Positions 16,868 to 22,079 of a stretch of DNA of 24,297 bases are shown here, piece by piece. The notes under the pieces were generated by a model that saw only the letters and a list, made by a program, of their open reading frames with translations, was not told the origin of the DNA and did no database searches. Each line of letters begins with the position of its first letter. The first letter of the stretch is position 1. Source of the stretch: a virus; IMG/VR virus record IMGVR_UViG_3300042307_002266, positions 1 through 24,297 of that record. One strand, written 5' to 3'. The position numbers and the translations under genes were made by a program.

Positions 16868-16898
16868 AAAAAAAGCCACTCAATTGAGTGGCTTTTTT
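16868..16898 (+). terminator. Strong intrinsic terminator after the DUF4041/GIY-YIG gene
   Basis: A perfect palindrome with GCCACTCAATTGAGTGGC as its core, flanked by seven A and six T. It ends transcription of the cI-DUF4041 unit and can also work on the minus strand. It isolates this unit from the early promoter that follows. Confidence 0.92.
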
Positions 16899-19344: not shown

Positions 19345-19376
19345 TTTTAATTCCCTCGAATTTGAGGGAATTAAAA
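19345..19376. terminator. Symmetric hairpin after the DUF2303 gene, possible terminator
   Basis: A 13-bp perfect stem, TTTTAATTCCCTC / GAGGGAATTAAAA, with a 6-base loop. It lies 18 bp after the DUF2303 stop. The base runs are within the stem and no long U-run follows. It may act as a weak terminator or a 3'-end stabiliser of the early transcript. Confidence 0.5.
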
Positions 19377-19514: not shown

Positions 19515-19543
19515 TGCAAAAACAATTTAATTTAAAGGAACAA

Positions 19544-20152
19544 ATGAATGAGTTGGCTCTTTTCTCAGGCGCTGGAGGCGGCATACTCGGCGGACAACTG
19601 CTCAACTGGCGCACCGTTTGCGCAGTTGAACGTGATGCTTACGCCGCAGCAGTTTTGGCGCAACGACAAAATGATGGACTGCTCGCGCCCTTTCCCATTT
19701 GGTCTGACATATCAACTTTTGACGGACGAGCATGGCGCGGCATTGTTGACGTGGTATCTGGCGGCTTTCCTTGCCAAGACATCAGCTCAGCGGGACGCGG
19801 CGCAGGCATCGACGGAGCACGCAGCGGTATGTGGCGAGAAATGGCAAGAATTATCGGTGAAGTACGACCGCGATTCGTGTATGTGGAAAACAGCCCAATG
19901 CTTGTGGGACGAGGACTTACCCGAGTCATCGGTGACCTTGCCGCGCTGGGGTATGACGCGCAGTGGTGCATTGTATCAGCACAAGACTGCGGAGCGCCCC
20001 ATAAACGCGACCGAATTTGGATACGCGCCACCGACACAAACGTGGGCGACACCGACGACGATGGACAAATTGCCGCCCAAGTCAGCCGAAGCATTGCACC
20101 GCGAAGCCACAATCGCCCGCCCAGGGCGAAGCCGCCCCGCCAACTTGCGTGA
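19544..20152 (+). CDS. Cytosine-5 DNA methyltransferase, catalytic half (frame A)
   Basis: A 202-residue protein with the N-terminal catalytic motifs of C5 methyltransferases. Motif I is LFSGAGGGILGG (about 6-17), binding S-adenosylmethionine. Motif IV is GGFPCQDIS with catalytic Cys77. Motif VI is FVYVENSPML, and motif VIII is HKRDRIWI at the end of the conserved part. After that (about residue 160) the protein degenerates into a Pro/Arg-rich end and stops. Target recognition and motifs IX-X are missing here; they lie in frame B. AAAGGA precedes the ATG by about 4 bases. The enzyme would modify phage or host DNA against restriction. Confidence 0.85.
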   Translation: MNELALFSGAGGGILGGQLLNWRTVCAVERDAYAAAVLAQRQNDGLLAPFPIWSDISTFDGRAWRGIVDVVSGGFPCQDISSAGRGAGIDGARSGMWREMARIIGEVRPRFVYVENSPMLVGRGLTRVIGDLAALGYDAQWCIVSAQDCGAPHKRDRIWIRATDTNVGDTDDDGQIAAQVSRSIAPRSHNRPPRAKPPRQLA

Positions 20153-20828
20153 CCAAGTGAGCAATACGATGAATTGGCCCACACCCGTCGCGTCGGACGG
20201 AAAGCGACAATCCTTAACTTACGGAGGAGGCAACCGCACTTTGTTTGGAGCGGTGCAACTTTATCCAACGCCAGTATGCGTTGATAACGGCGTATTTTTC
20301 AACACATCATGCGGCAAGCCACGTCCCACTTTGGGCGCAATGGCAAAGCACAACTTGTGGCCGACCCCAACCGTATGCGGCAACAATAACCGCAAAGTTT
20401 TGGGTACGAAAAGCGGTGACGGGCTTGGAACAGCTGTAAAAAAATGGCCAACGCCGCAAGCCTCGGATGTACGTGACCGTGGCAATTTAAGCAGCGGCTC
20501 AATACAGCGCCGTATCGCCAAGGGTAAACAAATCAATTTGTCAATGTCTGTCTCGGAAGAAAGCGGCCAGCTCAACCCCGATTGGGTCGAATGGCTCATG
20601 TGCTGGCCGACAGGCTGGAAATCGTTAGAGCCGCTCGACCGCTCAATTTTTGAAGCGTGGCAACAAAAAATTGCAACACATTGGTTAGCAGAACCCGCGA
20701 ACGTGCCACGCGTAATCAGCGGAATGAAGTTTCGCAGCGGTAGGCTCAAAGCCATTGGGAATGGACAAGTGTCAAAAGTGGCGGCGAGTGCATATTTAAT
20801 TTTGGAGATGAAAAATGAAGATTCGTAA
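19548..20828 (+). CDS. Overlapping frame B: carries target-recognition and motif IX-X part of the methyltransferase
   Basis: A 426-codon frame beginning 4 bases after frame A and shifted by +1. Up to about residue 165 it is the shifted reading of the catalytic half (MSWLFSQALEAAYSAD). From about residue 165 (TWATPTTMDKLPPKSAE) it is the only coding frame. It contains repeated WPTP motifs (NMNWPTPVASDG-like, LWPTPTVCGNN, KWPTPQASD), then NPDWVEWLMCWPTGW, typical of phage Dcm-like target-recognition ends. The C-terminus has motif X, RLKAIGNGQVSKVAASAYL. The frame may be translated from its own ATG, from inner ATGs at 20061 or 20169, or joined to frame A by a +1 frameshift near 20023-20043. Which is used cannot be decided from sequence. 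Confidence 0.75.
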   Translation: MSWLFSQALEAAYSADNCSTGAPFAQLNVMLTPQQFWRNDKMMDCSRPFPFGLTYQLLTDEHGAALLTWYLAAFLAKTSAQRDAAQASTEHAAVCGEKWQELSVKYDRDSCMWKTAQCLWDEDLPESSVTLPRWGMTRSGALYQHKTAERPINATEFGYAPPTQTWATPTTMDKLPPKSAEALHREATIARPGRSRPANLRDQVSNTMNWPTPVASDGKRQSLTYGGGNRTLFGAVQLYPTPVCVDNGVFFNTSCGKPRPTLGAMAKHNLWPTPTVCGNNNRKVLGTKSGDGLGTAVKKWPTPQASDVRDRGNLSSGSIQRRIAKGKQINLSMSVSEESGQLNPDWVEWLMCWPTGWKSLEPLDRSIFEAWQQKIATHWLAEPANVPRVISGMKFRSGRLKAIGNGQVSKVAASAYLILEMKNEDS

Positions 20829-21018: not shown

Positions 21019-21504
21019 ATGAGCAAAATTTTAGATCCCTGCTGTGGCTCTCGGATGATGTGGTTTGATAAGCAAGATAACCGCGCAGTATTTGGCGACA
21101 TCAGGGCAGAGAACCACACGCTTTGCGACGGTCGAAGCCTGTCAATTGAGCCTGATATGCACGTTGATTTTCGCTCAATGCAGTTTGACAGCGGCTCGTT
21201 TAAGCTCGTTGTATTCGACCCGCCGCATTTGGTCAACCTTGGTCAGACGAGCTGGATGGCAAAAAAATACGGAGTTCTATCGAAAGACTGGCGCGAAGAT
21301 TTGCGCAAAGGTTTTTCTGAATGTTTCCGAGTCCTTGAGCCGAACGGCGTTCTGGTTTTCAAGTGGAACGAGACGCAAATCAAAGTCTCGGAAATTTTGA
21401 AGCTGACTACTGAAAAACCAGTTTTTGGACACATCAGTGGCAAGCGAGCAAATACGCACTGGTTTGTATTTTTAAAAGATGAAAAATGCACGAAAAAGCC
21501 ATAG
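21019..21504 (+). CDS. Phage SAM-dependent methyltransferase-like protein
   Basis: A 161-residue class I methyltransferase-like protein. Motif I is ILDPCCGSRMMWFD (about 4-17), with the next acidic part GDIRAENHTLCDG. The DPPH motif lies in LVVFDPPHLVN (about 73-83), where N6-adenine methyltransferases have DPPY. Later parts are GVLSKDWREDLRKGFSECFRVL and LVFKWNETQIKVSEIL, typical of a small phage family. The C-terminal SGKRANTHWFVFLK matches as well. The lack of a recognisable target-recognition domain leaves the substrate unknown. It overlaps the next gene by 19 bases. Confidence 0.82.
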   Translation: MSKILDPCCGSRMMWFDKQDNRAVFGDIRAENHTLCDGRSLSIEPDMHVDFRSMQFDSGSFKLVVFDPPHLVNLGQTSWMAKKYGVLSKDWREDLRKGFSECFRVLEPNGVLVFKWNETQIKVSEILKLTTEKPVFGHISGKRANTHWFVFLKDEKCTKKP

Positions 21505-21728: not shown

Positions 21729-21993
21729 AACCATGGGATTTTGGTATCGAGTTCCTTACGAGTGCGAAGAATCGACTTACTTTGTCAATGAAAAATTTTA
21801 TGAACAAAGCGCAGGATCAGATGCGGCGCAGGACTATTGGAGCAATCACGACGGAAATGAGTCATCTTGGCCTTTGGTTTTTGAAATTAGCAAGACCCAA
21901 GAGTTTAAGCCGATTTTAAGATGCACTGTCGACATGGAAATGCATCCGTTTTTTAACTCAAACGATGAAATATTAAACGAATTAGTGGTATGA
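21721..21993 (+). CDS. Small acidic hypothetical protein
   Basis: A 90-residue acidic protein rich in aromatic residues (FWYRVPYECEESTYFVNEKF). It has a middle part SDAAQDYWSNHDGNESSWP and the end EILNELVV. GGAGG precedes the ATG by 6 bases, one of the best ribosome-binding sites in this cassette. The family is not recognised. Its stop overlaps the start of the methyltransferase C-terminal remnant (ATGA). Confidence 0.65.
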   Translation: MTETMGFWYRVPYECEESTYFVNEKFYEQSAGSDAAQDYWSNHDGNESSWPLVFEISKTQEFKPILRCTVDMEMHPFFNSNDEILNELVV

Positions 21994-22079
21994 CATTTCG
22001 CGGCGACAGGCTCAAAGCCATTGGGAATGGACAAGTTTCAAGAGCAGCAGCGGCGGAGTTTTTAATTTTAGAGGAGTAA
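21990..22079 (+). pseudogene. Remnant of a second C5-methyltransferase C-terminus
   Basis: Twenty-nine codons encode MTFRGDRLKAIGNGQVSRA and then end in EFLILEE. This matches the C-terminus of frame B (RSGRLKAIGNGQVSKVAASAYLILEM, in pieces). A 29-base stretch (22008-22036) is identical to 20742-20770. The rest has diverged, so it is not a recent duplication. It is a leftover of another methyltransferase gene whose main part has been replaced. A start codon is present by overlap with the upstream stop, but a working protein of this size is unlikely. Confidence 0.8.

What the first reader, a model, noticed from the sequence alone, without database searches (positions are those of the whole stretch)
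19544..20828. C5-methyltransferase encoded in two overlapping frames
Frame A (19544-20152) holds motifs I, IV, VI and VIII, including PCQ. Frame B (19548-20828), shifted by +1 and starting 4 bases later, holds the target-recognition part and motif X (IGNGQV). Neither frame alone has all motifs. From the sequence, frame B has no stop across the 600 bases shared with frame A. Known split C5 enzymes (M.AquI; M.EcoHK31I, whose second subunit is read in an alternative frame) show that two polypeptides can make one active enzyme. The options are a split enzyme, a programmed +1 frameshift near 20023-20043, or a mutated gene. No canonical slippery site is visible. The shared region could also be selected in both frames.
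Basis: partly seen in the sequence, partly recalled or inferred. Interest (0 to 1): 0.75.

Follow-up and report, generated by a model that had tools for sequence, protein, structure and literature searches.

The report
Cytosine methyltransferase in two overlapping frames
A phage gene region encodes the two halves of a DNA cytosine methyltransferase in two overlapping reading frames, an arrangement that hundreds of related phage and prophage loci share almost end to end, and in this phage one essential piece has moved from one frame to the other.

Summary
Frame A (alpha, 19544-20152, 202 aa) has C5-methyltransferase motifs I-VIII. Frame B (beta, 19548-20828, 426 aa, +1, starting 4 nt later) has the WPTP-type target-recognition part and motif X. 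They share 605 nt.

It is not an error, a simple frameshift or a recoding site. In relatives from phages, prophages and plasmids of many phyla the same +1 frame is open over the catalytic core: 115 of 116 non-redundant loci, against at most 25 when alpha's synonymous codons are shuffled. In 308 of 338 classified loci (some duplicate contigs) motif X is in alpha's frame and overlaps beta's C-terminus, so the genes are nested almost end to end. Beta shows purifying selection of its own.

The window is a derived variant: alpha is truncated, frame A has decayed downstream, and motif X sits in beta's frame. This scattered variant arose at least three times.

Best reading: a heterodimeric orphan phage methyltransferase, both subunits started from one ribosome-binding site at ATGAATG. 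M.EcoHK31I and M.AquI are the known precedents; the scale, the near-complete nesting and the moving motif X seem new. Expression and activity are inferred, not shown.

The parts
19534..19539 (+). Shine-Dalgarno-like AAAGGA, 4 nt before alpha's ATG and 8 nt before beta's ATG
   Evidence: sequence; the same spacing is the commonest in relatives
19544..20152 (+). alpha subunit, frame A, 202 aa: C5-methyltransferase motifs I-VIII, truncated against relatives
   Evidence: relatives' alpha continues to motif X
19548..20828 (+). beta subunit, frame B (+1), 426 aa: N-domain, WPTP-type recognition region, NPDWVEWLM block, motif X
19548..20152 (+). dual-coding stretch shared by alpha and beta
19772..19774 (+). 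catalytic cysteine codon of alpha (motif IV, FPCQD, C77)
   Evidence: translation; invariant in the alignment
19728..20043 (+). beta N-domain read in +1 across alpha's motifs IV-VIII
   Evidence: PHROG 1008; alignment A2; HMM hits
20574..20618 (+). conserved beta C-terminal block NPDWVEWLMCWPTGW, where nested relatives carry motif X in frame A
20150..20818 (+). frame A after alpha: stops at 20150, 20282, 20285, 20387, 20417, 20474, 20525, 20651, 20741, 20816 (decayed)
   Evidence: nested relatives have none downstream of the core
20682..20807 (+). motif X region in beta's frame (VPRVISGMKFRSGRLKAIGNGQV...)

Best explanation
The locus encodes a heterodimeric DNA (cytosine-5)-methyltransferase. 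Alpha (frame A) supplies SAM binding and catalysis (motifs I-VIII). Beta (frame B, +1) supplies the target-recognition region and, in this phage, motif X, which in this enzyme class packs back onto the SAM-binding core. Ribosomes loaded at one Shine-Dalgarno sequence start at ATG 19544 or at ATG 19548, making both subunits from the same mRNA without frameshifting. The usual form of the family nests the two genes almost completely, with motif X in alpha. The window descends from such a form: alpha lost its motif X and frame A decayed downstream, while beta carries a motif X behind its old C-terminus, probably gained by recombination with a related gene. It is probably an orphan modification enzyme that protects phage DNA from host restriction. 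Shown from sequence: conservation, selection on both frames, derived state of the window. Inferred: translation of both frames, heterodimer formation, activity, dual initiation, the recombination step and the role.
For: Both frames are open in 94 of 95 close loci against at most 13 under synonymous shuffling, and in 115 of 116 over the beta N-domain. Alpha-silent changes avoid stops in B (0.02% against 6.8%) and are conservative in B but not in the control frame. Window against L001: no stop in B, 3.7 expected. Reverse test: frame A downstream of the core has 0 stops in 6,342 codons of 62 nested loci, 2.7 per sequence expected. Shared start region NTGAATG with beta ATG at +4 in 77 of 100. Motif partition in relatives and recurrence of the window's variant. 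Nested alpha: core and motif X helix predicted ordered, the stretch between disordered; core fits M.HhaI. Two-polypeptide precedents exist.
Against: No expression or activity data. Beta's structure model is poor and has no fold match. No window-like locus close to the window was found, so its 3' part cannot be tested for selection. The window could be a recently damaged copy whose beta happens to be open. Motif IX was not located formally.
Confidence: 0.82

Rival explanations
1. Programmed +1 frameshift: ribosomes start in frame A and shift into frame B after motif VIII, giving one polypeptide with motifs I-VIII, recognition region and motif X in canonical order.
For: In the window and the other serial loci such a product would have the canonical motif order.
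Against: Beta has a conserved ATG of its own and frame B is stop-free over the whole core, 95 of 95 over codons 3-64, which a frameshift does not need. In the nested majority the fusion would lack motif X. No recognised slippery site was seen by eye around 20023-20152.
Confidence: 0.06
2. Decayed gene: the window's alpha is truncated and the locus is a pseudogene on its way out.
For: Alpha lost the C-terminal extension and motif X found in its nearest relatives, and frame A has ten stops from 20150 on. A homologue in E. coli is flagged as a pseudogene.
Against: All motifs are still present across the pair; both frames are intact; the same serial order recurs in distant lineages; changes since the split from L001 spare both proteins.
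Confidence: 0.1
3. Frame B is open only because alpha's conserved protein and base composition make it so; beta's first 165 residues are not translated.
For: Alpha's conservation imposes similarity on the other frames; identity in the control frame is nearly as high as in frame B.
Against: Synonymous shuffling gives far more stops, the control frame is full of stops, and conservative bias at alpha-silent sites is seen only in frame B.
Confidence: 0.02

Closest known systems
M.EcoHK31I (YGGCCR)
   Same: Nested relatives share its partition, alpha with I-VIII and X.
   Different: In the window motif X is in beta and beta runs 676 nt past alpha's end. From memory the beta of EcoHK31I is 176 aa, shorter than the 240-365 aa of most nested betas here. 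No sequence comparison was possible.
M.AquI (CYCGRG)
   Same: Alpha with motifs I-VIII, beta with distal variable region and motif X (PMC3404938), as in the window.
   Different: The window's beta overlaps alpha over 605 nt, all of alpha but its first 4 nt. The extent of overlap in AquI could not be checked.
Annotated phage pairs: Streptococcus P0095_50/51, Paenibacillus Honeybear_55/56, Mycobacterium Dylan gp7/gp6, Streptomyces Lilbooboo gp32/33, Arthrobacter Scavito gp81/82
   Same: Alpha and a +1 partner overlapping at the beta N-domain.
   Different: Shorter or partial overlaps and distant sequence; annotated in single records, no discussion found in the open literature.

Membership tests
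DNA (cytosine-5)-methyltransferase (PF00145) | Catalytic domain with motifs I, IV (PCQ), VI (ENS), VIII | tested here: met
   alpha, E 1e-31 over profile 4-163; catalytic residues invariant; core of the relative L001 fits M.HhaI
DNA (cytosine-5)-methyltransferase (PF00145) | Recognition region and motif X in the same chain | tested here: not met
   they are in frame B; the enzyme is split
M.EcoHK31I-like split enzyme | Second subunit read in an alternative frame overlapping the first | tested here: met
   +1 overlap of 605 nt, conserved and selected
M.EcoHK31I-like split enzyme | Alpha has motifs I-VIII and X, only motif IX in beta | tested here: not met
   window: X in beta. For relatives X in alpha is met; motif IX not formally located
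M.AquI-like split enzyme | Alpha has I-VIII, beta has motif X | tested here: met
M.AquI-like split enzyme | Motif IX in beta | tested here: inconclusive
   beta's model is too poor and beta has no Pfam match
either split enzyme | Both polypeptides are made and both are needed for methylation | not testable with these tools
   needs expression; only selection on both frames was shown

The most novel reading that the evidence does not exclude
A widespread family of phage and prophage C5-methyltransferases stores both subunits (mostly about 240-370 aa each) in one stretch of DNA in +1-related frames that usually start 4 nt apart. Beta's N-domain arose by overprinting the catalytic core. Motif X has moved between the two frames several times, so the window shows a pair that has partly un-nested.
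Probability: 0.7. Interest if true: 0.8.

Novelty: new variant of a known kind. Interest (0 to 1): 0.62.

Why it matters
Long same-strand overlaps in which both frames encode conserved proteins are rarely documented in prokaryotes. This family gives hundreds of natural replicates, and in the records examined beta was mostly unannotated and matches no Pfam family. It ties two halves of one enzyme together genetically, offers a way to study how target recognition diverges when the same bases also encode another protein, and the serial variants show what constraint the overlap imposes: once alpha's motif X is gone, the beta tail loses the Met/Thr that alpha's codons dictated. It also means that such genes cloned as alpha alone may appear inactive.

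Tried and rejected
Raw identity of frame B as a test of selection: rejected, the control frame shows a similar excess from shared ancestry; replaced by stop counts and the 4-fold-site test. A standalone, non-overlapping beta N-domain was sought in phages and viral contigs and in GTDB genomes; every clear case overlaps alpha. The single-chain ORF of L277 has a stretch resembling part of the domain, but the match is weak (E 0.0012 at a search space of 100). A fossil of a nested beta tail under the window's motif X: P = 0.05 only, so not used as proof; it is clear in L142 and L290. AlphaFold of beta: low confidence, no fold match. The original papers on M.EcoHK31I and M.AquI are not held. I could not settle whether nested or serial order is ancestral for the whole family; only for the window's own neighbourhood.

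Full report
WHAT IS THERE. Alpha (19544-20152) and beta (19548-20828) are exactly as described. Alpha is the catalytic half of a C5-methyltransferase (PF00145, E 1e-31, profile 4-163 of 324; TIGR00675 below its cut-off). Beta has no Pfam or NCBIfam match but matches PHROG families labelled DNA methyltransferase or unknown. The window is a virus record of 24,297 bases with a gpA-type terminase, a VapE-like protein, an S24 repressor-like protein and an integrase, so probably a temperate tailed phage.

RELATIVES USE BOTH FRAMES. tblastn of both frames against IMG/VR loci showed the same +1 pair, starts 4 nt apart in most, but with motif X in frame A, lying over the end of frame B. HMMs for alpha core, beta N-domain, beta C-terminus and motif X on the three forward frames gave the nested pattern in 126 of 137 loci of the first two sets and in most later ones. 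Sources include Pseudomonas, Acinetobacter, Burkholderiaceae, Enterobacteriaceae, Leptospira and A. baumannii plasmids, Verrucomicrobia, Planctomycetes, Actinobacteria, Bacteroidetes, Firmicutes and two archaeal MAGs. Four of 5,426 complete E. coli genomes carry a homologue of one relative. Of all loci classified, 308 of 338 are nested with X in alpha; the count includes some contigs fetched more than once. Of 70 close non-redundant loci with both stops in hand, alpha and beta end within 60 nt of each other in 62.

NOT CHANCE, AND SELECTED IN BOTH FRAMES. Shuffling synonymous codons of alpha leaves frame B open in at most 25 of 116 non-redundant loci (codons 66-164); 115 are open in fact. For the close set (codons 3-164) it is 94 of 95 against at most 13. 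For the window alone P = 0.00035. The third frame averages 4.6-8 stops. Identity in frame B is not a valid test by itself, because the third frame shows a similar excess. At alpha 4-fold sites with equal flanking bases, changes that involve a stop in B make up 0.02% against 6.8% expected, and the changes seen are more conservative in B than reshuffled ones (72 vs 39 columns; control frame 53 vs 58). Window against L001: 65 differences, no stop in B where 3.7 are expected, beta similarity P < 0.001. Reverse test: shuffling beta's codons in 62 nested loci gives 2.7 stops per sequence in frame A downstream of the core; observed 0 in 6,342 codons.

WHAT IS SPECIAL IN THE WINDOW. Frame A stops at 20150 and has nine further stops to 20816, while motif X stands in beta's frame behind NPDWVEWLMCWPTGW. 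The serial order recurs in L131, L207, L218, L274, L289 and L333, and in L003 with one more frame change. L142 and L290 look like intermediates: a motif X in beta's frame is still overlapped by a beta tail in the third frame (L142), or a relic motif X remains in frame A over beta's tail (L290). On a tree of 114 alpha cores the serial, X-in-beta label needs six changes, at least three forced by starred branches, and the window's neighbours are nested (many forks are weak). In nested betas the tail residue opposite alpha's invariant Asn of GNG is Met or Thr in 156 of 159, as the codons AAT and AAC require; none of the seven distinct serial tails has it. So the window most likely descends from a nested pair, lost alpha's motif X and has one in beta. 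The motif X of serial forms reads PR[VIL]..R..R[LI], the nested one GRVA.GVA.R.DRLK (by eye), which suggests recombination rather than a local duplication.

HOW IT PROBABLY WORKS. One Shine-Dalgarno-like AAAGGA (19534-19539) sits 4 nt from alpha's ATG and 8 nt from beta's. In relatives beta's ATG is at +4 in 77 of 100, while alpha's first codon is ATG, GTG or TTG in most. Dual initiation would give both chains. Alpha of the nested relative L001 is predicted ordered in the core and in the motif X helix and disordered between, and its core matches M.HhaI, so target recognition should come from beta. Beta's own model is poor. I recognised no cognate nuclease in the window, hence an orphan, probably anti-restriction, enzyme (inference).

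COMPARISON. M.EcoHK31I has I-VIII and X in the large subunit and IX in the small one; M.AquI has I-VIII in alpha and IX-X in beta (PMC3404938). The window combines AquI's partition with an EcoHK31I-like overlapping frame, so it fails one defining feature of the EcoHK31I type, while its nested relatives meet it. Searches of the open literature found no description of a nested family of this extent; subscription papers and REBASE could not be consulted, so priority is uncertain. A few phage records annotate both frames; most examined annotate alpha only.

Noticed in passing
window 21980-22073 vs 20714-20807: A second, orphan copy of the motif X segment (ISGMTFRGDRLKAIGNGQVSRAAAAEFLILEE), 80% identical in DNA to the end of beta, 1.2 kb downstream. 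The two copies flank three small ORFs and may be a trace of recombination.
   Followed up: partly
window 21019-21504: ORF with DPCCGSRMMW and FDPPH motifs that looks like a second SAM-dependent DNA methyltransferase; no Pfam match.
   Followed up: no
window 16869-16898 and 19345-19376: Two strong inverted repeats, a 30-nt perfect palindrome and a 32-nt one at 94%, the second about 170 nt before the methyltransferase genes; possible terminators.
   Followed up: no
L190 (Mycobacterium phage Llama gp74/gp75): Inside the pair alpha's homology passes to beta's frame and beta's to the third frame, as if one indel had shifted both together.
   Followed up: no
L142 2327-3634: Third-frame translation between the first and second beta tails reads like an HNH endonuclease (HHIDQDKTNNEPENIQTLCKHCHDFWH), which suggests that an HNH insertion accompanied the rearrangement.
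   Followed up: no
L277 1082-3271 (Actinomycetota MAG): A 730-aa single-chain relative: catalytic core, WPTP region, beta C-terminal block and motif X all in one frame.
   Followed up: partly
L370 (E. coli PCP07014 prophage): RefSeq flags the homologous methyltransferase as a pseudogene with an internal stop; which frame carries the stop was not checked.
   Followed up: no
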